From IMG/VR virus record IMGVR_UViG_3300025030_001289, positions 1-20,627 of that record: DNA of 20,627 nt; one strand, written 5' to 3'. The notes beneath the pieces were generated by a model. That model made no database searches and was not told the origin of the DNA. It saw only the letters and a list, made by a program, of their open reading frames with translations. The stretch's first letter is position 1. Each line of letters begins with the position of its first letter. Origin of the DNA: a virus. The position numbers and the translations under genes were made by a program. This document shows positions 1-20,627 of the stretch, piece after piece.

Positions 1-77
1 TAACCCGAATTAACGCTTCTGGAGAGCAGACAGTAGTCACTCAAAGAAAGAAGAAGAATCAAGTTCAAACTTTATAA
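1..77 (+). CDS. 3' end of an upstream CDS, possibly the tail of a split N-intein
   Basis: The frame beginning at base 3 is open from the window edge and stops at TAA 75-77, giving 24 residues that start TRINASGEQTVVTQ and end in a basic tail, KKKNQVQTL. I do not recognise a gene from so little. Its position, 24 bases before a free-standing homing endonuclease gene that is itself followed by a C-intein, is where the N-intein half of a fractured gene normally ends. The text TRINASGEQ resembles the stretch that follows the first ten residues of many inteins (T-R-x-x-x-G-E/K). No cysteine 1 and no Walker A residues are visible, so the exon end would have to lie just before base 1. It could equally be an unrelated gene such as a gp47-like neighbour. 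Confidence 0.45.
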   Translation, partial: TRINASGEQTVVTQRKKKNQVQTL

Positions 78-90
78 GTTTTTATAAGAT
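71..90 (+). promoter_or_regulatory. TTTATAAG direct repeat ahead of the endonuclease gene
   Basis: TTTATAAG occurs twice exactly ten bases apart (71-78 and 81-88), 13 bases before the ATG at 102. The AT-rich element resembles phage late-promoter TATA boxes and may drive the endonuclease gene. It overlaps the stop codon of the upstream CDS. Function is inference only. Confidence 0.25.
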
Positions 91-101
91 TTATCATTAT
101 A

Positions 102-1385
102 ATGCTACAATGTAAAAAATGTGAATTTAAAGGATCTAATCTATATGAACATATAGTTAATGACCACAAAATGATGTTTAATGATTACGTGGGCCTCTAC
201 GGAAAAGAGTGCACAATGACCCCACCAAAACCACCAAAAAAGAAACGTACTGATGGGTATGTAAGTGTGTTTAGTAAAAAATATTGGTTAGACAAAGGAT
301 TTACAGAAGAAGACGCAATATACCAAATTAAGATTCGTCGACCAAGTAATACAGAATATTGGATAAATAAAGGGTTCGACATGAAAGCTGCTATTATCAA
401 AGTTTATGAATTTGGTCAGTCTGGATTTAATAAAGATAAATTAATAGAAAAACATGGAATTGTAAAGGGAACTTTATTATTTAATGAACGAAAGGAAAAA
501 AAGAAACTTTCAGGAAGAACTGTTCAGTATTGGTTAAACCGTAACTTCAGTGAAGTTGAATCAATAAAAAAAGTTCATGATACTCAAGACACTACCTCAC
601 TGTCATATCATATAAAAAAATATGGAAAAAAGAAAGGAACTAAAAAAAGGGAGGAATTGACTAATAAATGGCAATCAACATTAAATAATAAATCAAAAAA
701 AGAAAAAGCTAGAATTAATAAATTAAAAATATCAAATGGAGTTAAATTTATAAAAAGTCAACACCCAGAAAATTGGGCAGAACTTTGTCTGGAAAAACAT
801 TTTGGTTACTGTAAAAACGGAAAGCATTCTCATTACACATTATTAAAAGAGATTATCAATAGTGCTCAATCAAAGGAGCAATTAATTATTTTTTTACAAA
901 AAAAAGATGTTGAAATTCGAGATTTAAAATTTATTCTTAAAAATGAATTAATTACTGAATTTTATAATATAGCTGATCAAACCGAACAACAATATATATT
1001 TAATAAAATTTGTCAACATAAAGGAATGAAACTAATGCCAAAAGTGGCATATGGCACACGAATAACATTTAATGGAATTTTATATAAATCAATACCAGAA
1101 TATAGTATAGCAAAATATTTAACTGATAATAATATAAAATTTGAATATGATTTACAATACCCATATCAAAAAAAGAAATGGCCAGCAGGATTTCGGTATG
1201 ATTTTTATATACCATGTATTAATTTGTATATTGAATACGCTGGATTGGCGGGTAGAATTGAATATGATAAAAAAATGATTAAAAAAAGAAATCATTGCAT
1301 TGCACATAATCTTAGTGTGTTTATATCGAATGATCATCCTGTGATAATTAAATTAATTGAAAATGAAATTAAAAAAAACAATTAG
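102..1385 (+). CDS. Free-standing homing endonuclease, PD-(D/E)xK/Vsr-like, with N-terminal zinc finger
   Basis: The 427-residue protein has three visible parts. Residues 1-35 form a C2H2-like finger (CKKC, then H and H) followed by a DYVGLYG-type tail, as in MucR/Ros-like fingers of phage homing endonucleases. Three imperfect repeats start at Y61, Y86 and Y143 (YWLDKGF, YWINKGF, YWLNRNF), probably DNA-recognition modules. The C-terminus, about 325-420, has a nuclease core: a YKSIPEYSIAKYL helix, then D367 in RYDFYIP and E378 in LYIEYAGL. The family pattern supports DNA cleavage at an intein-less allele. It lies directly upstream of a C-intein and ends 23 bases inside that ORF, which is the known fractured-gene layout. 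The start ATG has no clear Shine-Dalgarno site. The third catalytic residue is uncertain. Confidence 0.8.
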   Translation: MLQCKKCEFKGSNLYEHIVNDHKMMFNDYVGLYGKECTMTPPKPPKKKRTDGYVSVFSKKYWLDKGFTEEDAIYQIKIRRPSNTEYWINKGFDMKAAIIKVYEFGQSGFNKDKLIEKHGIVKGTLLFNERKEKKKLSGRTVQYWLNRNFSEVESIKKVHDTQDTTSLSYHIKKYGKKKGTKKREELTNKWQSTLNNKSKKEKARINKLKISNGVKFIKSQHPENWAELCLEKHFGYCKNGKHSHYTLLKEIINSAQSKEQLIIFLQKKDVEIRDLKFILKNELITEFYNIADQTEQQYIFNKICQHKGMKLMPKVAYGTRITFNGILYKSIPEYSIAKYLTDNNIKFEYDLQYPYQKKKWPAGFRYDFYIPCINLYIEYAGLAGRIEYDKKMIKKRNHCIAHNLSVFISNDHPVIIKLIENEIKKNN

Positions 1386-1740
1386 TATAGGAGACATATA
1401 TACTTTATTTAAAAAGTATGGTGATCTAAATTTAGATGTGCTTACACCTTACGGGTATAAACATATTGAAGCCTGTGAAATTACTGCAAAAAACTCTCCG
1501 GTAATTAAATTAACAACTGACAATAGCTTAGAATTATTATGTTCTCCTGACCATAAAATTAAAACTTTAAATGGTAGATTTGTAAGTGCAAACAGATTAT
1601 TACCTGGCCACAAAATTTTATCACAAGAATCTTCGACAACAATAAAAACAGTTCAATTAATGCCATATCGGCAAGATTTACTAGACATTCAAGTATCAGA
1701 CGTGCGTCAATATTACTCAAACGGTATAGTTTCGCATAAT
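1363..1740 (+). other. C-intein of an atypically split intein in the gp46-like gene
   Basis: The 126-residue region has the late intein blocks: SPDHKI (block B, with Ser in place of the usual Thr of TxxH), LLDIQVSDVRQYY (block F) and NGIVSHN followed by Ser (block G). It also holds nearly all of the N-terminal Hint core (ISIGDIYTLF, VLTPYGYKHIEAC), so only a short first segment with Cys1 is missing. This matches the atypical split of phage TerL-type inteins, which have tiny N-inteins. The insertion point is the GK/S junction of the Walker A P-loop. Confidence 0.88.
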
Positions 1741-3654
1741 TCAGCGATATTAGATTCTTTAGCATATTGTATTTTTGACAAGTCGTCACGTGGTACAAAG
1801 GGGTCACATATAATGAATAATAAAAAAGATTTTTTTGAATGTAAATTTAATTTTGAAATTAAAGGAGTAAATTACCATATCCACCGCACAGGAAAACGAA
1901 AAGACAACGGTAGTTCGGTAAAGGGTGATGTTGACTTTTATAGAATAGTCAACGGACAAACAGAATCACTAAATGGAGAAGAGCGTGATGAAACAAATAA
2001 AATAATTCGTTCGTATTTAGGAACATATGATGACTTTATTTTAACGGCTTTATCGCTTCAAAATAATAACACTGGATTTATCGACATGGTTCAAAGCCAA
2101 CGAAAAGATTTATTGTCGAAATTTTTGGACATTGGTATTTTCGAAGATTTATATGAAATTGCAGCACTTGAAATATCCGACACAGCTTCAGCTCTTCGCC
2201 GTCTTAAGAAAGAAGATTGGTCACAACTATTATCAGATACACAAACTCAAATAGGAGCAAGTGAAGGTGAATTACAAATACTAAATGAGCAAAAAGATAA
2301 TAGTAGCAAAGAACTTTTTAATGTAAACGAAAAACATACCACACTATTATCACAATACAAACCAATTGATTCAGGTGTTATTAACCTTACCAAACTAACA
2401 AATCAAAAACTCGAACTAAATAAATTACTGAAAGATCAGGCTACCAATTTAATCACTGCCAGTGAGCAGATTAAAAAATACACCGACAAATTAAACGGGC
2501 TTTTAGATTTATATCCAAAAGTTCCAGATAATATTCAACAGGGGATTGAAAATTTAATATTGTTAGAAACTAAATTCGAAAAAAATAAACAATTAATTTC
2601 GCGGTTGTTAATTGATTTAAAACATAAACAAGAAAAACTTAAAAAGTTAGAAGAGCATAAATACGACCCAGATTGCAAATTTTGCATGGATAATGTTTTT
2701 GTTAAAGATGCTATAGAAACAAAAAAAACTATCCTTGTAGATGAAACAAAACTAATTGACACAAAAGTAATTTCCGATAATCTTAAGAAAGAAATCGCCG
2801 AACATTTGTATTACCGCACTTTGCAGGAAGCCCTTGAGGCGAGTGACATTAAAATAAAAGAAGTGAAAGACACCCTTCAGAAAATATCAACTTCTCAAGA
2901 AATAACATCATTACAAATTAAATCAAATGAATCACAATTATTAATCATTGAACAAAAAATAAAGGATTATCATTTAAATGAAACGGCAATAAAGCACAAT
3001 ATAAAGTTAGATGAAAAAGTATTAGGAATTAAAAAAATACTTAGTAGTATTACCATTACGCACAATGAAACACTTGAAAAAATATTACATCTTAACGGGC
3101 AATACCAAGTACAACTCAAAACAAAAACTGATATTTTAGATAAAATAAAAGAACTGCAGGACCTTGAAACATACTATGAAGCATATGAACGATACCTTGC
3201 TGCAGTTAGTCGTGATGGTATTCCATATGATTTAATTTCGTCGACACTACCAAAAATTGAACATGAAGTAAATAACATTCTGTCACAAATGGTAGACTTT
3301 ACCATAACATTTAATACAGATGGTAAAAATATCAATGCCTATATTGTATATGATGATACAAACTTTTGGTTATTGGAATTGACATCTGGAATGGAGAAAT
3401 TTATATCATCGTTGGCTATACGAAACGCCCTTATATCAATATCAAACTTACCCAGACCAAACTTTTTGGCAATTGATGAAGGCCTAGGAGCACTTGACGC
3501 AGAACATTTAAGCCAAATGTTTTTAATGCTCGACTACCTTAAAGACCAGTACGAGTTCATAATTATGATCAGTCATCTTGACTCGACCAAGGATATGGTG
3601 GATAAATTAATGGAGATACAAAAAGAGGGCAGCTTTTCCAAAATAATTCATTAA
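1363..3654 (+). CDS. C-intein plus C-terminal half of a gp46/SbcC/Rad50-like recombination nuclease subunit
   Basis: This 763-residue ORF begins with a C-intein (residues 1-126) and continues from S127 as an SbcC/Rad50 ATPase lacking its first P-loop segment. S127 starts SAILDSLAYCIFDK, which fits the serine of the Walker A motif GxxGxGK-S and the helix after it. Visible landmarks are a long coiled coil (about 270-620), a CxxC zinc hook at C438/C441, the ABC signature LTSGME at 673-678, Walker B with D705-E706 in FLAIDEGLGALD, and a SHLD switch near the end. With a gp47-like Mre11 partner this family resects DNA ends for recombination-dependent replication. The N-half (Walker A to GK) is absent from the window, so activity would require trans-splicing. 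I prefer ATG 1363 to the in-frame TTG at 1357. It overlaps the upstream endonuclease by 23 bases, suggesting translational coupling. Confidence 0.9.
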   Translation: MKLKKTISIGDIYTLFKKYGDLNLDVLTPYGYKHIEACEITAKNSPVIKLTTDNSLELLCSPDHKIKTLNGRFVSANRLLPGHKILSQESSTTIKTVQLMPYRQDLLDIQVSDVRQYYSNGIVSHNSAILDSLAYCIFDKSSRGTKGSHIMNNKKDFFECKFNFEIKGVNYHIHRTGKRKDNGSSVKGDVDFYRIVNGQTESLNGEERDETNKIIRSYLGTYDDFILTALSLQNNNTGFIDMVQSQRKDLLSKFLDIGIFEDLYEIAALEISDTASALRRLKKEDWSQLLSDTQTQIGASEGELQILNEQKDNSSKELFNVNEKHTTLLSQYKPIDSGVINLTKLTNQKLELNKLLKDQATNLITASEQIKKYTDKLNGLLDLYPKVPDNIQQGIENLILLETKFEKNKQLISRLLIDLKHKQEKLKKLEEHKYDPDCKFCMDNVFVKDAIETKKTILVDETKLIDTKVISDNLKKEIAEHLYYRTLQEALEASDIKIKEVKDTLQKISTSQEITSLQIKSNESQLLIIEQKIKDYHLNETAIKHNIKLDEKVLGIKKILSSITITHNETLEKILHLNGQYQVQLKTKTDILDKIKELQDLETYYEAYERYLAAVSRDGIPYDLISSTLPKIEHEVNNILSQMVDFTITFNTDGKNINAYIVYDDTNFWLLELTSGMEKFISSLAIRNALISISNLPRPNFLAIDEGLGALDAEHLSQMFLMLDYLKDQYEFIIMISHLDSTKDMVDKLMEIQKEGSFSKIIH

Positions 3655-3702: not shown

Positions 3703-6700
3703 ATGATTAAACAAACCCGACCTTACCTAGGACTAAAAGATTATCCAGTTTACATCGAAGACAGTAGTGACCTGTCACCTGATTTATTTGTCATAACATC
3801 ATTACCAAAAACACTTACCACAGGAGTCAATGCTGTATTTTTAAAGGTAGATTCAGACAATTTCACTCCGGAAACTCCGCTGCTCGTCGAAGTATTAGAT
3901 TCCACAAATAACCCGATATATTACGAAGTGCCTGATTGGTTGTCGAAAGACATGGAACGCATGATTGCAATTCATATTCACGATGACACTCCTCCAGGTA
4001 ATGCCACAATTACATTAATTGGTCAAACAGATAAACTTTACCGTAACGAAGAAATTCCTTCGTTATTAGTTGGAAAACCAAATGTTCGATGGTCACATAC
4101 ATTTTTTGTAGATATTACAAAAAGAAATAATACCAACATATATTTTGAAGATGATGTTGAACCACAAATAACAATCGAAGAAAAAATTCGACCGTATATG
4201 TTGCGTTCATTTTCAACTACACAATTTGTAACGCAAAGTAATGCAATATCATATAAACTATCGGGCATAACACCGACTATTGAAATCACAGGGGCAACTA
4301 CATTTTTACCAGAACATTTAGGAGCTAGAATAAAGTTGACACCTGCAAATGCCATTCCGGCTTCGGGTAGTTCATTTGATTCAATGGACAAAGTTTATTA
4401 TGCAAACATAGAGTCAATTGAAACTTCAACGAAGGCAACATTGTCATATAGATATTATGTGACAAATACGTCAACGCTCATGACGTATGTGCCAAAAACA
4501 TTTACCGACGCTGCATGTGAAATACATTATGAAGCTCTTCCAACTTATACTTTAACACAGAATTCAAGGTCACTTGCACTAATAACCGTAAATGACTTAC
4601 TTCCAATATGTGGAGAAGTCGAACGAATAAAATCATTTTATAAAAGCAACGGATCGGCTGCAGGTTGGGAAGTGATTGATGACTCTGTTATAAAAGAATC
4701 TGAGTATAATGAAATATTAATTGATACAAGTTCAATTGATGTAAAAACTCGTCTAGGAACGATTGTGGATAGCAATACGATTTCTAATTATTGGACCGCA
4801 CAATTATACACACGATATAATGGTGTTAATGTTATTGACCCTCCTACTTATGAAGGCGATGAACCAATGGCATATGATCAGGGGACAATTTTATTCCGTT
4901 CATTTTATCCATATCATACATCGACCGTCACACACCCAACACAATTTTTAAAAATAACACCCGTCGGAACATTAGGAGAATTTCATGGAATGTTTGACGA
5001 GTGTGGAGAATATACACTTCAATTAAATTTATTGGGACGCACATCCACTTCAATTGGCTCCGGGGTACTACCACACATTGAATTTTATATGTCGGGTTCT
5101 GCATTTGACTATAAAGCAAACGAAAGTGGGTTAGGAAAAAAGATTGGCGAAATTAATGTCGGAGAATTATTACCCGGAACCCGTGGAAATAGTTTTCGAT
5201 ATATGAAACAAAAGTTTTCATTTATTGCCGACCGACAAAATACAGGAATGTTGCTTATTAAAGTTAATTCAGGTGATTGGTACTTTTCAGACATATCGAT
5301 TAAGCCAACTGCCGATTTAGGATATACTCCGTGTCAAACAAAAATGCTTATTCCAATTCCAACTAATCATATTAATGACCAATTAGATTTTAAATTTGAA
5401 TATTACAATCATGAAAATGCTCCGTCAAAAGTAATAAGCTATGTAAATAATATTTCTTTTGCAGGTGGCAATACATACATAGGCGGCTCTAATAATATGC
5501 TTACAGGTTCTTTACATATTGGTAATCAAATAGGAACTGGGCTGGAAATAATTGGACTTTCCGGTGGCGGACTCATACGAACATCAGGATATCGAGGATA
5601 TGTATCGGCAAGCGCCGGAACTGCCCCACCGGGATTTGCCATATGGTCGGGAAGTGCCATGGCAAATTATTCAGGGGAAGATTATAACGGTGTTGGAATT
5701 GAATTTCATGGTGGCGGGACAAGCGGTTCATTTAAGTTTCGTGGTAGTAAGACACCGGAATTTGAAATAGCCGCCCCAACATTTTATTTTGGAAACTCAA
5801 TACAATATATCAGTGGAAGTAACGGAATTTTATCCTTACAGACGCCGAATTTTTCTATAGACGAAAATAGTACCGTATGGATATCAGGTTCATTTAGTGG
5901 GAGTATTTCTCCCGGTTCATTACCATCTGGAATCCTGAGCGGAAGTGCCCAAATTGCAACAGATATTTCCGGTGCGTTTACAAGTGTAAGTTCAAGTTAT
6001 TCCACGCGAATTACATCTAATGAAGTTTCAATTATCACACTAAATTCAAAAACAGGCTCATACGCAACAACCGGTTCAAATACTTTTATTGGTAATGAAA
6101 TTATAAGTGGGTCATTAAATGTGTCCGGCTCTACTACTACTCCTGTGGTCATTGGAGCATCTGCTCCTGCCGGTACATTAACACTTAGGGCAACAAGTCA
6201 CTCAACAGATGGTAATATAATATTTGAAAGTGATCCGACAACAGAGAGACTTCGAATAAAATCAACCGGAGAATTATTAATAGGAATAACGTCATCACTA
6301 AGTGCTGCATATTCTATACAAACCGCACAAGGCGCGCAGGGTACAGGAATATTACTTCAATGTTATTCTACAACCCCTACCCATCAAGTAGTAATTGACG
6401 GACTGAAAAGTGCATCAGACACAATAGGAACTCGTATAGCAACAGCTGATAATGAATCAATTCTCGTCCTAACAGGATATGGGATAAATTCTTCTAACGG
6501 AACGGCTGCAGCAGGTAGTATTCATTTTGAACAGCACGGTGCCGCAGGAGCTACTTTTATTCCATCACGAATAACATTTAAGACCGGTGGCGCTGGCGGT
6601 CTTAAAACTGAAAAGATGCGTATTACTCCACAAGGAGTTATTAAGTTTGCAGGAACTGCAGAGCGTTCAGCTGAGGGCACTTCATATCTAGATTTGTTCA

Positions 6701-7928: not shown

Positions 7929-10013
7929 ATGACACAAATCAAAACCATAATAGCAATCTTTCCGGGACGTTTCCAACCGTTTCATAAAGACCACTTTACC
8001 AAATACAAATGGGCAGTACAACAGTTCGGTGCAAAAAATACATTTATAGGAACATCAAATGTAGTAACTCCTCCAAATTCACCATTGTCTTTTAAAGAAA
8101 AAAAAGCAATAATAAATCACTATGGTATTAAAAATGTCGTTCAAATAAAAGATCCATATAAAGCCGTTGAAATTGTATCAAAATTCGACCCCAAAACAAC
8201 CGCCGCTGTTTTTATATTAGGGGCAAAAGACGCTGCACGACTCGGCGGACCATTTTTTAGAAAGTGGGCAGGCAAAGCAGATGTTGGTTATCGTGATGGT
8301 GCCTATATTTTACTTGCACCACAATTAGCCTCCGACGAATTATCCGGCACAATGGTAAGAAAAGCACTTAGTTCTAAATTATCACCAGAAAAGAAAAAAC
8401 AAGAATTTAAAAAAATATTCGGTTGGTATGACCAATCAATTTTTAATTTACTTGTTAAAAAATTCGAAATCACAGAATCAACTATAAAGGAATCAACAGG
8501 AGCAGACGGACTAACCGGACAAACTGTTGATGCAAATTGGCTGGCACCGGGTAAGGAATTACATATTCGTAGAGGTAAGTGGATGGACGGATGGAAGCAA
8601 GTTGAATTCCCCACTGCGGATAATCCATTTGACAAAGATTCAACCGAAATAAGAATACGTACAGACACTATTACTAACACTCCTGATATGCTTGATAAAC
8701 TATATGCAGAACTACAAAAGGCAGTGCCACTCGGAGCACTATCAGAAGCCATTACAATTCCTATTGAAATTGGCGACCTTATTTTGGGCGGCAAATTTAA
8801 AAATAAGAAAATCATTGTAAAAACAATTGGTAAAAACGAGAAAGGTGACCTTACAATAAACGGCAGCCCAATATTGCGAGTACGCATAACAAAGAAAGAA
8901 GTTGAAGAAATGGTCGATGAAATAGTTAATGGCCCAAGTGAAATTAAGGAAGGATTAGTTGACCACGCTGAATCTGAAGTGAAACGTGCAGGACTTTTAG
9001 ATAAAGATGCTGATTACGGAGGTATGATTGGTAAAGCTGTATTGGAATTAATGGACACTTTTTCTAAACAAGGTCATTCCGGATTTTCGGCTCAATGGGT
9101 ACGAGAATTATTTAATAAATTATCAAACTATGAAACACTCACACCACTTACAAACGAAAGTGATGAATGGAATGACGTATCTGAAATGTTAGATAAACCA
9201 TTTTGGCAAAATAAAAGAAATCCTGCTGTATTTTCTATAGACGGCGGTAAAACAATGTATCACGTAGATGGTAAAACAATTAAAAATGGTATTGTAGAAG
9301 GCATACGATTATTCCAATCAAAAAAGAAATTATTTGAGGGAAAAGATTATGTTGTATGTGAAATTTGTAAAAAGAAACTTAAAAGGATACACTCATTCCA
9401 TCTCAACACCCATAATTTGTCAATATCTGAATACTTAAATAAATTTCCCTGCGCATTACTTCTATGTGAAAATACACGTAAATTGTACTCTGAAAACAAC
9501 TCAATGAACGACAAGCAATCAATTGAAAAGATTAAAGCTACAAAAGTTGATATAAAAAATTCAAAGTCACCTCTTAATTTAATTTCTGAAGGGGGCGGTT
9601 TCGGCCACGTTAGTCATCCATTTGAAGAGTGGGATTTAACATTCAATGATTTAAAAACTTTAATTGAAGGTGGATTATCCGGAGAACTTTCAAAGCATAC
9701 GACCGTGCTTGAAAAATGCATTGAAGGCGATTCAATAGTTACTTTAGAAAGTGCAGGAGAAACGAAAATTTCTGACGTCGTTGATAAAAATATTGACGAT
9801 AATATATTGGCGTTTAACGAGGAAACACAAAAAAATGAATTTTTACCCATTCAAAATAAATTTAATAATGGAATTCATGATGAATGGCTCAAAATTGAAC
9901 TTGAAGACGGCAGAACAATTTGTGCTACCCCCAATCACAAATTTTATATCGAAGGAATTGGATATATACGAGCAGATCAATTATCCGTTAATGATGATTT
10001 AAAAATAATTTAA
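7929..10013 (+). CDS. N-half of split cytidylyltransferase/ligase-like protein with N-intein
   Basis: Residues 1-170 form a nucleotidyltransferase (cytidylyltransferase/NMN adenylyltransferase-like) domain: FPGRFQPFHKDH with H19 and H22 (HxDH in place of HxGH), and SGTMVR at 139-144 as the ISSTxxR-like motif. A middle region of unknown function follows. A zinc finger with C477, C480, H491 and H495 (VCEICKK, HLNTHNLSISEYLNKF) is next, then GHVSHPFEEWDLTFNDLK, and the protein reaches K596. That lysine is the first residue of KxDG, the covalent nucleotidyltransferase (DNA/RNA ligase) motif I. An N-intein (597-694) follows and the ORF stops. Trans-splicing with the product of 10764-11978 would give about 965 extein residues. 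A role in nucleic-acid end repair or NAD/nucleotide chemistry is inferred; the substrate is unknown. No Shine-Dalgarno site is evident. Confidence 0.85.
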   Translation: MTQIKTIIAIFPGRFQPFHKDHFTKYKWAVQQFGAKNTFIGTSNVVTPPNSPLSFKEKKAIINHYGIKNVVQIKDPYKAVEIVSKFDPKTTAAVFILGAKDAARLGGPFFRKWAGKADVGYRDGAYILLAPQLASDELSGTMVRKALSSKLSPEKKKQEFKKIFGWYDQSIFNLLVKKFEITESTIKESTGADGLTGQTVDANWLAPGKELHIRRGKWMDGWKQVEFPTADNPFDKDSTEIRIRTDTITNTPDMLDKLYAELQKAVPLGALSEAITIPIEIGDLILGGKFKNKKIIVKTIGKNEKGDLTINGSPILRVRITKKEVEEMVDEIVNGPSEIKEGLVDHAESEVKRAGLLDKDADYGGMIGKAVLELMDTFSKQGHSGFSAQWVRELFNKLSNYETLTPLTNESDEWNDVSEMLDKPFWQNKRNPAVFSIDGGKTMYHVDGKTIKNGIVEGIRLFQSKKKLFEGKDYVVCEICKKKLKRIHSFHLNTHNLSISEYLNKFPCALLLCENTRKLYSENNSMNDKQSIEKIKATKVDIKNSKSPLNLISEGGGFGHVSHPFEEWDLTFNDLKTLIEGGLSGELSKHTTVLEKCIEGDSIVTLESAGETKISDVVDKNIDDNILAFNEETQKNEFLPIQNKFNNGIHDEWLKIELEDGRTICATPNHKFYIEGIGYIRADQLSVNDDLKII
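9717..10010 (+). other. N-intein (98 residues) of the split ligase-like gene
   Basis: It begins at Cys (TGC 9717-9719) with CIEGDSIVTL (block A) and includes ATPNHKFYIEG (block B, TxxH), then ends at a stop after ADQLSVNDDLKII. Length and break point match canonically split inteins (about 100 + 35 residues). The preceding extein residue is the predicted catalytic lysine K596. Confidence 0.93.
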
Positions 10014-10018
10014 TAAAT

Positions 10019-10783
10019 ATGAAAGGTAAAAGAATATTTTATTGTGAGCATTGCAAACGATCAATTAAAATCAAATCTAAATATGATATTTCAGTGCATA
10101 AGAAATTTTGTAATGCTTATAAATCATATAGAGATAAAATTTTAACTAAGAAATTTTTGGTAAAAGAATATATTAAAAATGGTAGATCTGCAAAAGAAAT
10201 TTCAACTAAACATGGTATTCCAGTTGGAAGAATTATCAAAATGATTAGTAATTTTAAATTAAAAACACGAACGTTGAAAGAAAGTATATTAATGCCCAGA
10301 TGTAAAAAACGCACTGAGAATACAAATTTAAAAAGATATGGTGCAATTAATCCATTATCAAAAAATACAATTCCATATAATAAGCGCAATGAAACGGTTA
10401 AGAATAAGTATGGAGTGGACAATGTATTTCAGGTACCTGCGATTATTAAAAGAATACAAAAGACTGTTAGTAATTGGCGAATTCCAGGAGTACACAAACT
10501 AAATTTTAATCCAAAGGCGATTCCGATAATAGAGGCATACGGTAAAGAACATGGATGTAATTTTCGACATGCACAAAATCATTCTAAGGGAGAGTTTTCA
10601 ATATTAGGATATTTTGCAGACGGATATGATGAGAAAAATAATGTTTGGATTGAGGTAGACGAGAAACATCATTTTTATAAAAATGGAAAATTGAAACGTA
10701 AAGATGTTCGTCGCCAAAAAGAAATACAAAAATTTTTAAAATGTAAATTTATACGAATTAAATATGAAGATAAAAAGCATTAA
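10019..10783 (+). CDS. Free-standing homing endonuclease, EDxHD/PD-(D/E)xK-type, between split-intein halves
   Basis: The 254-residue protein begins five bases after the N-half stop codon. Residues 9-31 hold a putative zinc knuckle (C9, C12, H27, C31). Residues 44-85 look like a helix-turn-helix of the kind common in phage homing enzymes (YIKNGRSAKEISTKHGIPV). Two LKRYGAINP / NKYGVDNVFQ repeats follow at about 105-140. The C-terminal nuclease core shows D201 in FADGYDE, E212 and D214 in IEVDEKHHF, then KDVRRQKEIQKFLKCKFIRI. It is expected to cut the uninterrupted ligase-like allele and spread the intein-endonuclease unit. It is a different protein from the endonuclease at 102-1385 in its recognition modules, though both end in a restriction-like fold. 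Codon use is more A/T-biased than in the exteins. Confidence 0.87.
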   Translation: MKGKRIFYCEHCKRSIKIKSKYDISVHKKFCNAYKSYRDKILTKKFLVKEYIKNGRSAKEISTKHGIPVGRIIKMISNFKLKTRTLKESILMPRCKKRTENTNLKRYGAINPLSKNTIPYNKRNETVKNKYGVDNVFQVPAIIKRIQKTVSNWRIPGVHKLNFNPKAIPIIEAYGKEHGCNFRHAQNHSKGEFSILGYFADGYDEKNNVWIEVDEKHHFYKNGKLKRKDVRRQKEIQKFLKCKFIRIKYEDKKH

Positions 10784-10868
10784 AAAATCCAACAAGATCT
10801 TGACAAGATATGATATACAGGTCAAGGGCAGAAAATGTTATTATGCAAACGGTATTTTAATTCACAAT
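10764..10868 (+). other. C-intein (35 residues) of the split ligase-like gene
   Basis: TRYDIQVKGRKCYYANGILI is block F running into block G, and HN is followed by Thr at the +1 position (ACC 10869-10871). The length is typical of naturally split C-inteins and pairs with the N-intein at 9717-10010. Confidence 0.93.
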
Positions 10869-11978
10869 ACCGACGGCCAACAGCTTTCAATTTCATGGCA
10901 TGACAATAAATTAGTAGGTGCAAGAAATAAAAGTGAATTATCAGGATATGGAAAAAATGCACTTTCAGTCTCTGAAATTATTTCAAAGTTTAAAGGCCGC
11001 GGAGAAATAACAAAGGCAATGAAAGACATGGAAAGTGCAATAAAATCATTATCAAAAGATTCACGAGAAAAAATATTTAAGAACGGTAAGATATTTTTAT
11101 CAATGGAAATTATATGGCCGGCAACTACCAATGTAATTAATTATGGCAAAGCCCTGTTGGTTATTCATGGAACACAAATTGAATATGATGAAACCGGTAC
11201 GGCAGTACAATATATTAAAGGTCAGGCAAGTGAATTGGTTTCTGCAATTAAAAAAGTCAATGCAAATCTTCAAAAACACTTTGAAATTATAGAACAGCCG
11301 GTAATTGACTTACCAAAAATTTCAGATTTTTCAAAAAAGAAATCTTATTTTCTTGGCAAATTAAATAAATTAAAAGGTGAATTTGGATTAAAAGATACCG
11401 ACCAAGTTACAATTTATCATCAGCGTTGGTGGGAGAATTTTATTGGTAAAAATGCAAATAAATTCAAGTATGGTGTTCCAAGTAACATATCAACCGAACT
11501 TGTAAATCGTTGGGCATTTGGTAATAAAAGTTATTCAGTTGCATTGATGAAATCACAAATAAAAAATGCAGAATTTTTAACATGGGCACTTGATTTTGAT
11601 AAGAATAAACACACCGAGCAATTAAAGAAAAATATGTGGCCGTTTGAAAGTTTATTTCTGGAACTTGGTGCGGAAATATTAAGTAATTTAAAAACCTTCC
11701 TAACAGCATCCCCCGACAAAGCAGTACAAGATATACAAAAATCACTGGCGAGCACAATTTCAACAATTAAAGCAAGTGATAATGTAAGAAATATTACGTT
11801 ATTAACCAAACAATTAGAACGAATAAATGCAATTGGAGGACCAGATAAAATAATACCTTCAGAAGGACTTGCATTTTTATATTATCCTCCAGGAGCAACC
11901 GAGCCTAAGATGCTTAAGCTCACCGGAAAATTCGCTCCCCTTAATGCTTTGTTGGGAATCTTAAAGTACGCACGATAA
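10764..11978 (+). CDS. C-intein plus C-half of the cytidylyltransferase/ligase-like protein
   Basis: Residues 1-35 are a C-intein ending ILIHN; the extein starts at T36. After splicing, K596 of the N-half joins TDGQQLSISW, giving EKTDGQ, a KxDG adenylation motif. Downstream ARNKSEL fits the conserved arginine region after motif I. FLSMEIIWP suits motif III, EGLAFLYYPP motif IV and LKLTGKFAP motif V of the covalent nucleotidyltransferase fold. The extein part is 369 residues. ATG 10764 lies 20 bases inside the end of the endonuclease gene, so the two are probably translationally coupled. Motif matching is by eye; whether the domain is an active DNA/RNA ligase or another nucleotidyltransferase is open. 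Confidence 0.83.
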   Translation: MKIKSIKKSNKILTRYDIQVKGRKCYYANGILIHNTDGQQLSISWHDNKLVGARNKSELSGYGKNALSVSEIISKFKGRGEITKAMKDMESAIKSLSKDSREKIFKNGKIFLSMEIIWPATTNVINYGKALLVIHGTQIEYDETGTAVQYIKGQASELVSAIKKVNANLQKHFEIIEQPVIDLPKISDFSKKKSYFLGKLNKLKGEFGLKDTDQVTIYHQRWWENFIGKNANKFKYGVPSNISTELVNRWAFGNKSYSVALMKSQIKNAEFLTWALDFDKNKHTEQLKKNMWPFESLFLELGAEILSNLKTFLTASPDKAVQDIQKSLASTISTIKASDNVRNITLLTKQLERINAIGGPDKIIPSEGLAFLYYPPGATEPKMLKLTGKFAPLNALLGILKYAR

Positions 11979-12020: not shown

Positions 12021-12674
12021 ATGTCAAAAAAGCGTCCAAAAGCAAACGAAAAGTTACAAAATAATAAGGCAGTACGCGACATGTTGCAGGGCTCACATAA
12101 GAGCCAAACAAAAACCGTAATTGGATATCAATCAGATACCAATACAAAAAAGCGTGAAATCGGTGAACGATGGACCGATGCAAATGGTACAATTTGGGAA
12201 CAGAGAGATGGATATCGTATAAAGGACGCCGAGCGTGGCGATTTGTTAAAAGAAATACAAGACATGATTCGCATGCCGAGTCATTGTCCAAAATGTAACA
12301 AACCACTTGACCACCGGCTCGACAAGAAATTTTGGAATCTTGAAAAACAATGTTTTAATTGCCAGGTCGAATATGAGACGAAATTAAGAATTAAAGGTAC
12401 ATACCAAGAATACGAAAAAAATAAAATGCTCGCCAACGTAAAGGCATGGTTGATAGATGCGGCAAGAGAAAAGGAAGTGGTCAAACACGAAATAACCAAA
12501 AATACTTTTGTCAATTCAAATGGCATACTTGAAAAATGGACACTACCATATGATCCGGAAGTTATGAAAAAACAAATAGATGAAAATTTTGAAAAGTTTA
12601 AAAAGGATTTATTATCTAAATATGGAGAAAATTATGAAACCAAAACAACCGACAAAAATGAAAACATTATTTAA
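12021..12674 (+). CDS. Zinc-ribbon phage protein of unknown function
   Basis: The 217-residue protein has a basic N-terminus, a GERWTDANGTIWEQRDGYR segment at about 50-70, and a four-cysteine zinc ribbon (C89, C92, C111, C114). A charged, helical C-terminus follows. I do not recognise the family. It opens the small-gene cluster before the terminase and overlaps the next gene by 41 bases, so it is probably a late gene concerned with virion assembly or structure. Confidence 0.75.
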   Translation: MSKKRPKANEKLQNNKAVRDMLQGSHKSQTKTVIGYQSDTNTKKREIGERWTDANGTIWEQRDGYRIKDAERGDLLKEIQDMIRMPSHCPKCNKPLDHRLDKKFWNLEKQCFNCQVEYETKLRIKGTYQEYEKNKMLANVKAWLIDAAREKEVVKHEITKNTFVNSNGILEKWTLPYDPEVMKKQIDENFEKFKKDLLSKYGENYETKTTDKNENII

Positions 12675-15957: not shown

Positions 15958-18900
15958 ATGGCAGATACATCATTCTTTGCAAGGCTTGCTCGCCTTTTTT
16001 CGACCAACGTCATTGTCCGACGTATTGGTAAAAATCGTTTAAAAGTAGTTGACACTTCCCGTCTTCAATCCACCGGAAATGTCGATAATACAAGGTATGT
16101 CGACAGATATTCCCGCATGCATGGTTCTAATTCCAATGCAACTGCAATCAATCAAAACTACAATTATCAAAGCTCGCGCATACAATTATTCGGTGATTTT
16201 GAATGTCTTGCCGGTGAAACAAAAATTCCACTTCCAGATGGATCTCACCCTACAATAGCAGAACTTGCATTGAAATATCCAGGGAACTCGTCTAAATTCT
16301 ATGTGTTTTCATATGATCATGAAAACGATTGTATTAAATTAGGAGAAGCCCATTCAGTAAGAAAAACCAAAACTGAAATGACATATAAAGTTACATTTGA
16401 TAATGGCGAATATTTAATTGCAACAGACAATCATCCGTTTTTAATGCGAACCGGTAAATATACTCCGGTTCAGGAGTTAAAGGTCGGCGATTCTTTAATG
16501 CCTTTCTACAGAAAGAATTTTTATTCCGAAAAATACAATTTTGTTTATAATTTTTCAAAAAAATGGCAGTCTGAACATAAAATTGTTGCGGAACAATTTC
16601 ATAGAGAAATGCTTCCTGGGGAAGTAGTACATCATAAAGATTTTCAAAAATATAATAATTTACCTGATAATTTGCAAATTATGTCTGATCATGATCATCG
16701 GCACTATCATAGTGTTATCATGAATAAAAATCATAAATGGTCACCGGAAAATAGAGAACGGCAAATAGCAGCACAAACAGCCGGTAACAAAAGATTTAGG
16801 GAAGAAAATCCTGTTCGATATGCCCAAATTTGTAAAGAACAAAGTCGGATGATGAAAGAAAAAAACCCAAATTTTACCCATCCAATTACAGAAGAATCAC
16901 GAGTTAAAAAATCAAACTCTTTAAAGAAATTTTATAAAACTCATCCAAATTATAATGCAAACGAAAATAATGGTAATTGGAAGAATGGATTAACTTATCA
17001 AATAATCGAAAATACTGCTATTGAATTGTATAAAACTACCGGAAAAATTACAAAAGCACAAATAAAAAATAAATTAAAAGGAATAGGGCAAGGAATTGAA
17101 CCTCGAATAAAACAAGCCGGATTTAATAGTTATGTTGATTTTAAAAATCATATTAAAAATACATTAAATCATAAAATCACTTCTATAGAGCCATATGAAG
17201 TTTTAGATGTATATGACATGACAGTTGACAAATATAATAATTTTGCAACCGAAAATGTTTTTGTTCATAATAGTATGGATACCGATGCCCTTATCAGTTC
17301 TGTCCTCGACATTTGCTCAGATGAATCAACACTGAAGAACTCCTATGATGAAGTATTGGCAATTAAATCTTCCAATGAAAATGTAAGAAAAATCCTATAC
17401 AATTTATTTTATGATATTCTAAATATTGAATTTAACTTATGGCCATGGATACGAAATATGTGTGTAGACGAGAATACTATAATTCCATTGTTAGATGGAA
17501 GATCTTTAACTATAAAGGACCTAAGCAATGAAATGAAATTAAACCCTAGCAAAACATATTGGGTGTATTCAAACCACGAACAAACGCAACGAACCGTACC
17601 AGGTAAAATAAAATGGTGTGGTATAACACAAAAAAATGCCAAGATAGTACGTGTTAGATTAGATGATAATACATATATCGATACCACTCCTGACCATAAG
17701 TTTTTACTGAGAAATGGAAGCAAAAAGGAAGCGCAAGAATTAACATCTGGGGATAGTTTGATGCCGTTATATACTAAATTAACCACTAAAACTAATCGCA
17801 ACAAGGAAGGTTATGAAAAAGTTTATAACCCAGCATCTAACAGGTATAATGTAACGCATCGATTGGTTGCGTATGAATGTGGAATAAGTAATGTCAAAGA
17901 AGAACGAAAAACCGGGCAAATTTATCATACACATCATGTAAATTTTGATAAAAAGAATAATTTACCTGAGAACTTAAGAAGGATGACTGCAAGTGATCAT
18001 GCAATATTGCATTCTACTGGCTCGAAAATTTTTGCAAGACCTGATATTGTTAAAAAACGGATGGTAGGTATAGATAAATGGCTACGATCAGAAAAACATA
18101 GTAAAATGGTATCCGGAAGACAGAAAGGCATTTATCCAAAACATTTTCAGGAATATAATAACAGTATGTTGCATAAAGAGCATGATAAAATTAAATCTGA
18201 TCTAATAAAGGAATATTGGAAGAATGGTAGATTAAAGCCTCGACCAAAATTAATTTTAGATGAACGCTGTTTAAGTATTATCACCAAAACCGTTAAAAAT
18301 CATTCGGCTTATATAGGTTTAGAAACCCTAGCTAATATTTTAAAACTCGATGATAATTTTTCAAAATATTTCCAGGAAGCAAATAAATCACATAAATATA
18401 ATGTATTAAAATCAATTAATCTCGCAACATTAAAGGTCATGATAAAGAGGGATACTGGTATGTATTATTGTGACTTTTTAATGTCAATACTCCCCACACT
18501 TGTGACGGACCCTAAATTTAAACGTGCCAAATCAATAACTGATCTTTCAAAGAAAATAATAAATCATAAAGTAACATCAATCGAATTTCTAGACACTACA
18601 TCTGATGTTTATTGTATGGAAGTTGTTGGCCCAAATAATGAAGAAGATCGACATAACTTTGCAGTGTGTAGTAAAAATTCAGACGGTTCGTATAGCAGGA
18701 ATGGCGTGTTTGTTTCGAATTGCAAGTACGGCGATCATTATCTTTGGCTTCACATTCAAGAAGGAGTTGGTATTGTAAATGTACTACCAATATCGGCATA
18801 TGAAATGGTCAGAGAAGAAGGAATGGACCCAAAAAACCCATATGAAGTTAAATTTTATCGTCAAGGTATTATGGGACAAAAGGAGTCACTTAAAAATTAT

Positions 18901-20627
18901 GAAGTGGCCCACTTCAGATTACTTTCTGACAGTAATTTCTTGCCATACGGTAAAAGTTATATTGAAGGAGCACGAAAAACATGGAAGCAACTTGTTTTAT
19001 TAGAAGACGCCATGCTTATTCACAGAATAATGCGCGCGCCAGAAAAAAGAGTATTTAAAGTTGATGTTGGTAATATTCCACCAAACGAAGTTGACCAACA
19101 TATGAAAAATATTATTGACGGAACCAAGAAAATACCGTTTGTTGATGAAACAACCGGAGAATACAACCTCAAATATAATATGCAAAATATTACAGAGGAC
19201 TGGTTTTTACCAACCCGTGGCACCCAAACTACAACGGATATCACTACCCTTCCTGGATTACAATATCAAGCAATTGACGATGTCACTTATCTTAAAGATA
19301 AAATGCTTGCCGCATTAAAAGTACCTAAGGCGTTCTTAGGAATGGAAGAAAAAATGGAATGTATTTCACCTGATACATTAATACCACTACTTTCAGGTGA
19401 AACCAAATCGGTTTCTCAATTAATTGATGATTATGAGCATAATATTAAAAATTATGTATATTCTATAGACGAAGCTTCATATGAAATAGTGCCCGGTGAA
19501 ATAACATGGGCCGGAATTACAAGGAAAAATGCAACCATTGTACGAGTTCATTTAGACAATAAAAAATATATTGACTGTACTCCTGATCATAAGTTTTTAA
19601 CTCGTAATGGGAAGTGGGTAGAAGCACAAAGTCTGACCATTGGTCAATCATTAATGCCATTATACACACGACCCTCGACAAATAAAAAAATATCAAATTA
19701 CACTGAAGTATATCATCCAGGAAGCGGAAGGTGGGAAATGGTTCACCGTTTAGTTGCTAATTATTATAATATAAAGCAGAAAGGTAAAGTAATTCATCAC
19801 ATAGATATGAATAAATGGAATAATGTACCAAATAATTTGGATAGTTCTATGACGTTCATGGAACATCGGTTTCATCATGTAGAATTAGCTAAATTAGGTA
19901 ATGTATCAAAAGCAATGCAAATATACAGAGCATCTGACCAATGTAAACATAATGCATCTGTAAACGGGCGTAAAGGTGGAATTAAGTCAGGAAAAAAATT
20001 AGGCGAATGGGTTCAAAAACATGGTCCATGGAATAAAGGAAAACACACATCAATAGCACCTCCAAATAAAGGGCAACGTACTTTACCGTATTACGAATGC
20101 CCAACGTGTAAAACTTCAAATTACAATAAACATTTTTGTAATAAACAATGTGAGGCAAAATATAAAATTGGTAATACATATAATTGTAAATATACCAATA
20201 TTACATTTGATACTCTAACCGCTGCAGCTGCAGTAAGTAAATCTTTTAGAGAATTAAGTAGTGAATTACAGACCACTCGAAATACATTATTTCGCATTTT
20301 TAATAAGTTTGACATTAACGAAAATAATATATTCCAATTTATTAAAAAATATATGCCATTGGCATTAAAAAACAGGGGCTTCATCAATAATTTTTCTGGT
20401 GAATATAAAAACCATATAGTAAATGCTATTGAAATTCTCGAAAATAAAATTGATACGTGTGATATTCGGGTATTGAAATATCATAACTTCGCAACTGACG
20501 CAGGTGTTATCATTCATAATTCTGGTAAGGCAACACTCGCAGCCCAAGACATTCGTTTTGCCCGTACAATTGAACGTATCCAACGAATTGTCTGTTCGGA
20601 ACTTACCAAGATTGCAGTAGTACATTT
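15958..20627 (+). CDS. Portal protein, T4 gp20-like, carrying three inteins; 3' end outside the window
   Basis: One frame stays open from ATG 15958 to the window end (1556 codons). Removing three inteins leaves exteins 15958-16203 (82 residues), 17272-17460 (63), 18721-19359 (213) and 20521 onward (35 and continuing). The joined exteins read as a gp20-like portal: LFGDFE + SMDTDALISSVLDICSDEST, LWPWIRNM + CKYGDHYLWLHI, and AFLGMEEKME + SGKATLAAQDIRFARTIERI, with the family's LKVPKAFLGMEE and RTIERIQRIV stretches. The portal is the dodecameric ring at the capsid vertex through which the terminase packages DNA. Three splicing events are needed for a working protein. It lies 46 bases after the terminase; the tail sheath and tube genes that separate gp17 and gp20 in T4 are not between them. 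Confidence 0.93.
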   Translation, partial: MADTSFFARLARLFSTNVIVRRIGKNRLKVVDTSRLQSTGNVDNTRYVDRYSRMHGSNSNATAINQNYNYQSSRIQLFGDFECLAGETKIPLPDGSHPTIAELALKYPGNSSKFYVFSYDHENDCIKLGEAHSVRKTKTEMTYKVTFDNGEYLIATDNHPFLMRTGKYTPVQELKVGDSLMPFYRKNFYSEKYNFVYNFSKKWQSEHKIVAEQFHREMLPGEVVHHKDFQKYNNLPDNLQIMSDHDHRHYHSVIMNKNHKWSPENRERQIAAQTAGNKRFREENPVRYAQICKEQSRMMKEKNPNFTHPITEESRVKKSNSLKKFYKTHPNYNANENNGNWKNGLTYQIIENTAIELYKTTGKITKAQIKNKLKGIGQGIEPRIKQAGFNSYVDFKNHIKNTLNHKITSIEPYEVLDVYDMTVDKYNNFATENVFVHNSMDTDALISSVLDICSDESTLKNSYDEVLAIKSSNENVRKILYNLFYDILNIEFNLWPWIRNMCVDENTIIPLLDGRSLTIKDLSNEMKLNPSKTYWVYSNHEQTQRTVPGKIKWCGITQKNAKIVRVRLDDNTYIDTTPDHKFLLRNGSKKEAQELTSGDSLMPLYTKLTTKTNRNKEGYEKVYNPASNRYNVTHRLVAYECGISNVKEERKTGQIYHTHHVNFDKKNNLPENLRRMTASDHAILHSTGSKIFARPDIVKKRMVGIDKWLRSEKHSKMVSGRQKGIYPKHFQEYNNSMLHKEHDKIKSDLIKEYWKNGRLKPRPKLILDERCLSIITKTVKNHSAYIGLETLANILKLDDNFSKYFQEANKSHKYNVLKSINLATLKVMIKRDTGMYYCDFLMSILPTLVTDPKFKRAKSITDLSKKIINHKVTSIEFLDTTSDVYCMEVVGPNNEEDRHNFAVCSKNSDGSYSRNGVFVSNCKYGDHYLWLHIQEGVGIVNVLPISAYEMVREEGMDPKNPYEVKFYRQGIMGQKESLKNYEVAHFRLLSDSNFLPYGKSYIEGARKTWKQLVLLEDAMLIHRIMRAPEKRVFKVDVGNIPPNEVDQHMKNIIDGTKKIPFVDETTGEYNLKYNMQNITEDWFLPTRGTQTTTDITTLPGLQYQAIDDVTYLKDKMLAALKVPKAFLGMEEKMECISPDTLIPLLSGETKSVSQLIDDYEHNIKNYVYSIDEASYEIVPGEITWAGITRKNATIVRVHLDNKKYIDCTPDHKFLTRNGKWVEAQSLTIGQSLMPLYTRPSTNKKISNYTEVYHPGSGRWEMVHRLVANYYNIKQKGKVIHHIDMNKWNNVPNNLDSSMTFMEHRFHHVELAKLGNVSKAMQIYRASDQCKHNASVNGRKGGIKSGKKLGEWVQKHGPWNKGKHTSIAPPNKGQRTLPYYECPTCKTSNYNKHFCNKQCEAKYKIGNTYNCKYTNITFDTLTAAAAVSKSFRELSSELQTTRNTLFRIFNKFDINENNIFQFIKKYMPLALKNRGFINNFSGEYKNHIVNAIEILENKIDTCDIRVLKYHNFATDAGVIIHNSGKATLAAQDIRFARTIERIQRIVCSELTKIAVVH
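16204..17271 (+). other. Portal intein 1 (356 residues) with HNH homing endonuclease
   Basis: Cys1 begins CLAGETKIPLPDG (block A); ATDNHPFLMR is block B and VLDVYDMTVDKYNNFAT is block F. NVFVHN followed by Ser is block G. The inserted endonuclease region has SEHKIVAEQF, then VVHHKDFQKYNNLPDNLQIM with H143/H144 and a later H-x-x-x-H, an HNH/beta-beta-alpha metal site. DNA-binding segments follow (ESRVKKSNSLKKFY, NNGNWKNG). All splicing residues look intact. The DNA is more AT-rich than the exteins. Confidence 0.93.
17461..18720 (+). other. Portal intein 2 (420 residues) with HNH homing endonuclease and Ser-Asn C-terminus
   Basis: Block A is CVDENTIIPLLDG and block B TTPDHKFLLRNG. Block F is DVYCMEVVGPNNEEDRHNFAV and block G NGVFVSN before Cys. 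The penultimate residue is Ser instead of His. The HNH region reads HRLVAYECG, then HHVNFDKKNNLPENLRRM (H158/H159) and SDHAILHS. It inserts between RNM and CKYGDHYL. It shares long stretches with intein 3 (IPLL-G, TPDHKFL-RNG, SLMPLYT, NNLPENL/NNVPNNL). Activity is likely but the Ser-Asn ending is unusual. Confidence 0.92.
19360..20520 (+). other. Portal intein 3 (387 residues) with HNH homing endonuclease
   Basis: Block A is CISPDTLIPLLSG and block B CTPDHKFLTRNG. The ending IRVLKYHNFATDAGVIIHN before Ser gives blocks F and G. The endonuclease region has MVHRLVANYY and VIHHIDMNKWNNVPNNLDSS (H146/H147), then EHRFHHVE. It has a NUMOD3-like segment (GPWNKGKHTSIAPPNKGQRT) and a small cysteine cluster (CPTC, then CNKQC) not seen in intein 2. 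It inserts after EEKME, close to the conserved portal arginine-rich helix. Confidence 0.93.

What the first reader, a model, noticed from the sequence alone, without database searches (positions are those of the whole stretch)
7929..11978. Complete fractured gene: split intein with a nuclease gene between its halves
The sequence shows an N-extein plus 98-residue N-intein ending in a stop, then a free-standing nuclease gene, then a 35-residue C-intein plus C-extein, within about 4 kb. This matches the 'fractured gene' arrangement described from marine metagenomes, here in a nucleotidyltransferase/ligase-like gene. The three open frames are intact, so a trans-splicing system with its own mobility gene is likely live.
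Basis: partly seen in the sequence, partly recalled or inferred. Interest (0 to 1): 0.88.

Follow-up and report, generated by a model that had tools for sequence, protein, structure and literature searches.

The report
Split-intein fractured phage ligase-like gene
A phage gene is broken in two exactly beside the predicted catalytic lysine of a ligase-like enzyme by a split self-splicing protein element with its own DNA-cutting gene in the gap, and the same lineage of elements turns up at that one catalytic motif in many different DNA and RNA ligases of uncultivated phages.

Summary
N-extein (596 aa) plus 98-aa N-intein, a free-standing 254-aa nuclease gene, and 35-aa C-intein plus 369-aa C-extein lie intact at 7929-11978. 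The junction K596|T is right: all 91 fetched homologues with an empty site read straight through as EK-xDG, 88 of them EKTDGQ. The nuclease belongs with EDxHD/Vsr-like homing endonucleases. So this is a "fractured gene", a kind described in 2009, in a host gene I could not find recorded as fractured.

The extein is probably a ligase-superfamily nucleotidyltransferase. The intein cuts its KxDG motif right after the predicted adenylated lysine, so the enzyme should be dead until trans-spliced.

Intein-only searches gave a wider pattern. Of 71 distinct paired split loci, 70 are in proven or apparent ligases (DNA and RNA, ATP- and NAD-dependent), 65 of those at motif I. Contiguous relatives from the same scans mostly sit in terminases and other genes. 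Nuclease lineages track the insertion site, nucleases are often decayed or deleted, and two copies appear re-fused into contiguous mini-inteins.

Splicing and DNA cleavage are inferred, not shown. Whether ligases were among the eight enzyme types of the 2009 paper could not be checked.

The parts
7929..9716 (+). N-extein, 596 aa: CTP_transf_like domain, Tad3-like domain, zinc-finger segment, start of ligase-like domain; ends ...TTVLEK
   Evidence: (PF01467 E 2.2e-6 at aa 10-145; PF25185 E 1.4e-32 at aa 343-452)
9714..9716 (+). Codon of K596, predicted motif I (KxDG) catalytic lysine, last N-extein residue
   Evidence: E59/K60 and D62/G63 invariant in 27 intein-less homologues
9717..10010 (+). 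N-intein, 98 aa (C1, TPNH block B); stop codon 10011-10013
   Evidence: nearest solved intein NrdJ-1 8ubs (E 3.5e-9; family profile 3.3e-14)
10019..10783 (+). Free-standing homing-endonuclease gene, 254 aa: Cys/His zinc finger, DUF7487-like region, EDxHD/Vsr-like C-terminal domain
   Evidence: profile match to the related nucleases A8 99.9%, E 9e-32, which match I-Bth0305I 3r3p E 5.6e-8
10764..10868 (+). C-intein, 35 aa, MKIKSIKK...YYANGILIHN; overlaps nuclease 3' end by 20 nt
10869..11975 (+). C-extein, 369 aa: TDG of motif I, then the rest of the ligase-like domain (EGLAF / MLKLTG resemble motifs IV and V); stop 11976-11978

Best explanation
The locus is a mobile fractured-gene element, a 1,152-bp cassette (9717-10868) made of N-intein, nuclease gene and C-intein, inserted in a phage cytidylyltransferase/ligase-like gene exactly between the predicted catalytic lysine and the TDG of motif I. 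The halves are made as separate proteins, associate through the split intein, and trans-splice K596 to Thr, which rebuilds EKTDGQ and so creates the active site. Until then the nucleophilic lysine and the rest of the active site are on different chains. The EDxHD/Vsr-like nuclease cuts uninterrupted alleles at this conserved stretch, and repair copies the cassette in (homing). The element belongs to a lineage of split inteins that has colonised the same catalytic motif in several ligase families. SHOWN by sequence: anatomy, junction, families, motif position, recurrence, site-linked nuclease lineages, decayed and deleted nucleases. INFERRED: splicing, ligase activity of the extein, DNA cleavage, homing.
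For: Junction: 91 intein-less homologues read EKTDG (88) or EKLDG (3) across the site; 31 fetched loci, many near-copies, carry the intein exactly there (alignment). Intein catalytic residues present. Nuclease: profile match to 18 nucleases of sister loci, which match I-Bth0305I (5.6e-8) and Vsr (4e-4). Extein fold: AlphaFold2 model of an intein-less homologue, pLDDT 86.5, pTM 0.81; the first 21 Foldseek PDB matches are all RNA or DNA ligases. Lineage: junction 0, 3 or 5 residues after the KxDG/KxHG lysine in 42 of 45 non-identical split loci in the first set and in 63 of 70 in the enlarged one, plus L287, which was missed because its N-half has a long tail. Pfam: RNA_ligase, RNA_lig_T4_1, ATP DNA ligase or NAD DNA ligase domains in 9 of 9 spliced exteins of other site groups. 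Tree: all ligase-site inteins on one side of the RNR inteins (100/97), window site group a clade (97/87). Nuclease tree nearly site-sorted (7 changes, minimum 6) and correlated with the intein tree, r 0.82, 0 of 2000 permutations. Occupied and empty alleles interleave on the host-gene tree, 9 changes, at least 5 forced by well-supported branches. Nuclease frames broken (L120, L127, L130, L136, L139) or gone (L024, L119, L123, L043, L135) in relatives.
Against: No splicing, cleavage or ligase data. The window's extein has no Pfam or PDB sequence match to ligases, and the Foldseek E-values are only 6e-3 to 0.4. The nuclease model is mediocre (pTM 0.43) and its own Foldseek matches are weak. The block-F histidine of many inteins is absent here. 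The test for separate ancestry of the window's host gene and those of its closest inteins is not significant (p-AU 0.467), so recent horizontal arrival in this phage is not shown. The intein queries came from ligase loci, so kin in other genes may be under-sampled.
Confidence: 0.87

Rival explanations
1. The split intein is a relic: the halves no longer splice and serve as two separate proteins, or the gene is dead.
For: No activity data; block-F histidine replaced; nuclease genes of some relatives are decayed.
Against: C1, TxxH, HN and +1 Thr are kept in the window, and C1, HN and a +1 Cys, Ser or Thr in relatives at 24-51% N-intein identity; both long frames are open; without splicing motif I would be destroyed although the C-extein keeps the residues invariant in empty homologues.
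Confidence: 0.08
2. Assembly error or frameshift: really a contiguous intein with an in-frame nuclease domain.
For: Single environmental contig; contiguous inteins exist at the same residue (L050, L108).
Against: The same split layout recurs in 70 distinct paired loci, with separate nuclease genes of different lengths in about 30 of the first 45; the two contiguous copies lack the nuclease altogether (136 aa).
Confidence: 0.02
3. The nuclease is an unrelated gene that landed in an already split intein and does not drive its spread.
For: Several loci have the split intein without a nuclease (L024, L119, L123, L043, L135); free-standing EDxHD-type nucleases outside inteins are known (from memory of Dassa 2009).
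Against: Nuclease lineages sort by insertion site and follow the intein tree; the nuclease always lies at the intein break; a remnant-like nuclease 3' end is left in L024.
Confidence: 0.1
4. Clustering at ligase motif I reflects the general tendency of inteins to persist at conserved active sites, not motif-directed spread between paralogous ligase genes.
For: Inteins generally sit in conserved catalytic motifs (established knowledge); most site groups form their own clades, so jumps between ligase families are few.
Against: One lineage, 70 of 71 split loci in proven or apparent ligases, while the contiguous relatives in the same scans lie mostly in terminases and other genes.
Confidence: 0.45

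Closest known systems
Fractured genes (Dassa et al. 2009, doi 10.1093/nar/gkp095; not held here, known from memory of its abstract)
   Same: Conserved enzyme gene broken by a split intein with a free-standing endonuclease gene between the halves, mainly phage, Vsr-related endonuclease in about half of the loci
   Different: Host here is a cytidylyltransferase/ligase-like fusion cut at the motif I lysine; a whole intein lineage at the catalytic motif of ligases. Whether ligases were among the eight enzyme types of that paper could not be checked
AceL NrdHF split intein (PMC7891396)
   Same: Fractured-gene organisation in a phage-like contig, 98-aa N-intein, typical break point
   Different: Class 3 intein (no Cys1), GIY-YIG nuclease, ribonucleotide reductase host
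NrdJ-1 split intein (PDB 8ubs)
   Same: Nearest solved intein by sequence; naturally split, fast trans-splicer
   Different: Ribonucleotide reductase host; falls outside the ligase-site clade
EDxHD homing endonuclease I-Bth0305I (PDB 3r3p) and Vsr
   Same: Catalytic-domain family of the nucleases in the gaps
   Different: I-Bth0305I is an intron-associated phage enzyme (PMC3943268); here free-standing inside a split intein
Pseudaeromonas phage KLEP7 'intein-containing RNA ligase' (OM654377.1)
   Same: Intein in a phage RNA ligase
   Different: Contiguous intein, at GEWAG|..SN rather than motif I

Membership tests
Fractured gene | Conserved coding region broken in two by a split intein | tested here: met
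   Continuous in 91 homologues, broken with both intein halves here
Fractured gene | Free-standing endonuclease gene between the halves | tested here: met
   10019-10783, own start and stop, nuclease family match
Fractured gene | Host is a DNA synthesis or repair enzyme | tested here: inconclusive
   Ligase-like by motif and predicted fold only
Fractured gene | Halves trans-splice into one protein | not testable with these tools
   Splicing residues present; needs expression
Class 1 intein | Cys1, block B TxxH, C-terminal HN and C/S/T at +1 | tested here: met
   CIEGDSI, TPNH, IHN, +1 Thr
EDxHD/Vsr-like homing endonuclease | Homology to the I-Bth0305I/Vsr catalytic domain | tested here: met
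   Indirect: A6 to A8 99.9%, A8 to 3r3p 5.6e-8 and to Vsr 4e-4; direct Foldseek weak
EDxHD/Vsr-like homing endonuclease | Site-specific cleavage of the intein-less allele | not testable with these tools
   Occupancy pattern fits homing
Ligase / nucleotidyltransferase superfamily (window extein) | KxDG motif I | tested here: met
   E59, K60, D62, G63 invariant in 27 homologues
Ligase / nucleotidyltransferase superfamily (window extein) | Sequence-level match to a ligase family | tested here: not met
   No Pfam match for the joined domain, no meaningful PDB sequence match
Ligase / nucleotidyltransferase superfamily (window extein) | Ligase fold | tested here: inconclusive
   First 21 Foldseek matches all ligases, but best E 5.7e-3

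The most novel reading that the evidence does not exclude
A lineage of fractured split inteins specialised on one catalytic motif: elements with lineage-matched EDxHD nucleases that spread by targeting the DNA encoding the adenylated-lysine motif (KxDG) and have crossed between paralogous ligase families (ATP DNA ligases, NAD DNA ligases, several RNA ligase types, the window's fusion), with occasional nuclease loss and re-fusion into contiguous mini-inteins.
Probability: 0.5. Interest if true: 0.75.

Novelty: new member of a known kind. Interest (0 to 1): 0.6.

Why it matters
It offers a trans-splicing/homing element in a gene where splicing should be an on-switch: the predicted nucleophilic lysine and the rest of the active site are made on separate chains. 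The family-wide pattern (70 of 71 split loci in proven or apparent ligases, 65 of those at motif I) makes a general question testable: do inteins cross between paralogous genes because their nuclease reads a shared catalytic motif? It also gives some 70 natural split inteins with +1 Thr, Ser or Cys for protein-ligation work, and apparent cases of a split intein returning to a contiguous one.

Tried and rejected
Sequence searches for the window's ligase domain in Pfam, PHROGs and PDB gave nothing useful, so the fold of an intein-less homologue was predicted instead. The grouping of window, L028 and L032 inteins against their host genes looked like horizontal transfer, but the AU test does not support it; claim dropped. 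L287 first looked like a contiguous intein with a nuclease inside; it is split with a long N-tail. Bacterial and archaeal genomes: no relative of the N-intein. Cultured phages: no motif I ligase intein found with four N-intein queries, though not every hit was opened. Dassa 2009 is not held, and the papers looked through that cite it do not list its host enzymes in the passages seen.

Full report
Observation. The window is a whole 20.6-kb IMG/VR record from a tailed phage with T4-like terminase, portal and SbcC/gp46 genes. The N-half is 596 aa of extein followed by a 98-aa N-intein (TIGR01445 E 8e-10, Pfam Intein_splicing 4.5e-7). The C-half is a 35-aa C-intein and 369 aa of extein. A 254-aa ORF lies between, and the C-half start overlaps it by 20 nt.

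Junction. Relatives of the C-half were fetched from viral contigs. Most of the homologues L003-L020 run straight through the site, and the spliced window protein aligns with EK joined to TDGQ. Over all fetched loci there are 91 empty sites (88 EKTDGQ, 3 EKLDG) and 31 loci with the intein exactly there, many of them near-copies. Three large-phage records, one of them a cultured Microcystis phage, have an uninterrupted form.

What the host gene is. The N-extein carries a CTP_transf_like domain and a Tad3-like domain. The domain that spans the junction has no Pfam or PDB match by sequence. An AlphaFold2 model of the intein-less homologue L018 is good (pLDDT 86.5, pTM 0.81). Its first 21 PDB matches are RNA and DNA ligases, with T4 RNA ligase 1, a Palaeococcus RNA ligase and a fungal tRNA ligase at the top, E 5.7e-3 and upward. 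With the invariant KxDG, this makes a ligase-superfamily nucleotidyltransferase the best reading; it is inferred, not shown. The intein then lies between the lysine that would carry the nucleotide and the rest of motif I.

The nuclease. PHROGs calls it a homing endonuclease. Ten same-site nucleases (A6) match 18 nucleases of other split loci (A8) by profile at 99.9%. That set matches the EDxHD enzyme I-Bth0305I at 5.6e-8 and Vsr at 4e-4. The A8 set keeps an invariant D, E, H, D series, and the window enzyme has a comparable series (D201, E212, H218, D229). Direct structure matching of the window nuclease is weak.

The lineage. The first scan also brought in L021, L022 and L024, which share only the C-intein. 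Their exteins proved to be an RNA ligase, another RNA ligase and an ATP DNA ligase, all broken at motif I. Scans with intein sequence alone then gave 45 and finally 71 distinct paired split loci. In the enlarged set 64 have the junction 0, 3 or 5 residues after the lysine of KxDG/KxHG (63 counted, plus L287), one is a KLEG variant (L266), five are at a KTDEER-type site (L064, L132, L263, L264, L317), and one is a ribonucleotide reductase (L104). Pfam confirms RNA_ligase, RNA_lig_T4_1, ATP DNA ligase or NAD DNA ligase domains in all nine spliced exteins of other site groups that were tested, among them L064 for the KTDEER-type site; the remaining loci are assigned by motif and similarity only. 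In contrast, C-intein matches inside contiguous frames lie mostly in terminases and other genes, with two ligases among 37 rows. Caution: all queries came from ligase loci, so kin elsewhere may be under-sampled.

History. On the intein tree the ligase-site elements lie on one side of the two reductase inteins (100/97), and the window's site group is a clade (97/87); the NrdJ-1 row used as outgroup was entered from memory of its published sequence and its N-part agrees with PDB 8ubs. The nuclease tree is nearly sorted by site (7 changes, minimum 6) and follows the intein tree (r 0.82, 0 of 2000 permutations). On the host-gene tree occupied and empty alleles interleave, with 9 changes and at least 5 forced by starred branches. 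Nuclease genes are intact, broken into pieces, or gone. Two contiguous 136-aa mini-inteins at the same residue (L050, L108) nest among split ones with support 96/87, which suggests re-fusion. A specific horizontal transfer into the window's phage is not shown.

Mechanism. Halves translated separately, intein halves associate, trans-splicing rebuilds EKTDGQ and with it the active site; the nuclease cuts empty alleles and the 1,152-bp cassette is copied in. The anatomy is shown; splicing, cleavage and enzyme activity are inferred.

Known or new. The arrangement is the fractured gene of Dassa et al. 2009, which I know only from memory of its abstract; a further fractured-gene split intein with a 98-aa N-part is AceL NrdHF (PMC7891396). 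EDxHD enzymes are described in PMC3943268. I found no held paper describing fractured ligases, but the key paper is not held. I therefore file the window as a new member of a known kind, and put the motif-specialised lineage forward as the novel case.

Noticed in passing
window 1-3654: A second fractured gene: an SbcC/gp46-like ATPase C-half (1357-3654) begins with a C-intein of about 126-128 aa ending VSHN|S, preceded by a free-standing ORF (102-1385). The first bases (TRINASGEQTVVTQRKKKNQVQTL*) look like the end of a very short N-intein cut off by the window edge. Relative L226 holds the whole arrangement..PNFGGK, ~29-aa N-intein (CIRYNTKIDIEYDLDFIIKKLGFIPDELK), EDxHD-like nuclease 4928-5977, C-half from 5974.
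   Followed up: partly
window 15958-20625: The T4-like portal protein carries three contiguous inteins with HNH endonuclease domains in one frame, so a 20-kb fragment holds five intein insertions.
   Followed up: no
window 8955-9284: A Tad3-like domain (PF25185, type I Thoeris inhibitor, E 1.4e-32) lies inside the N-extein; similar segments occur in unrelated phages.
   Followed up: no
window 9342-9446: ROS/MucR-like zinc-finger segment (weak, E 0.0065) in the N-extein, in a variable region where homologue L005 has a metallopeptidase-like insert.
   Followed up: no
L050, L108: Contiguous 136-aa mini-inteins without nuclease at the same EK|TDG site, nested among split inteins on the tree: apparent re-fusion of a split intein.
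   Followed up: partly
L024 5929-6000: The gap between intein halves keeps what reads like the 3' end of a nuclease gene (..GYNVEVVWDDEITSKRIQEILNKYEN), a likely deletion remnant.
   Followed up: partly
window 7910 and 11996: Identical TTATACTTATA motif just upstream of the N-half gene and of the gene at 12021, possibly a phage promoter; no copy inside the cassette.
   Followed up: no
L228 2605-4728: Pseudaeromonas phage KLEP7 RNA ligase has a contiguous intein at GEWAG|..SN, a site other than motif I.
   Followed up: partly
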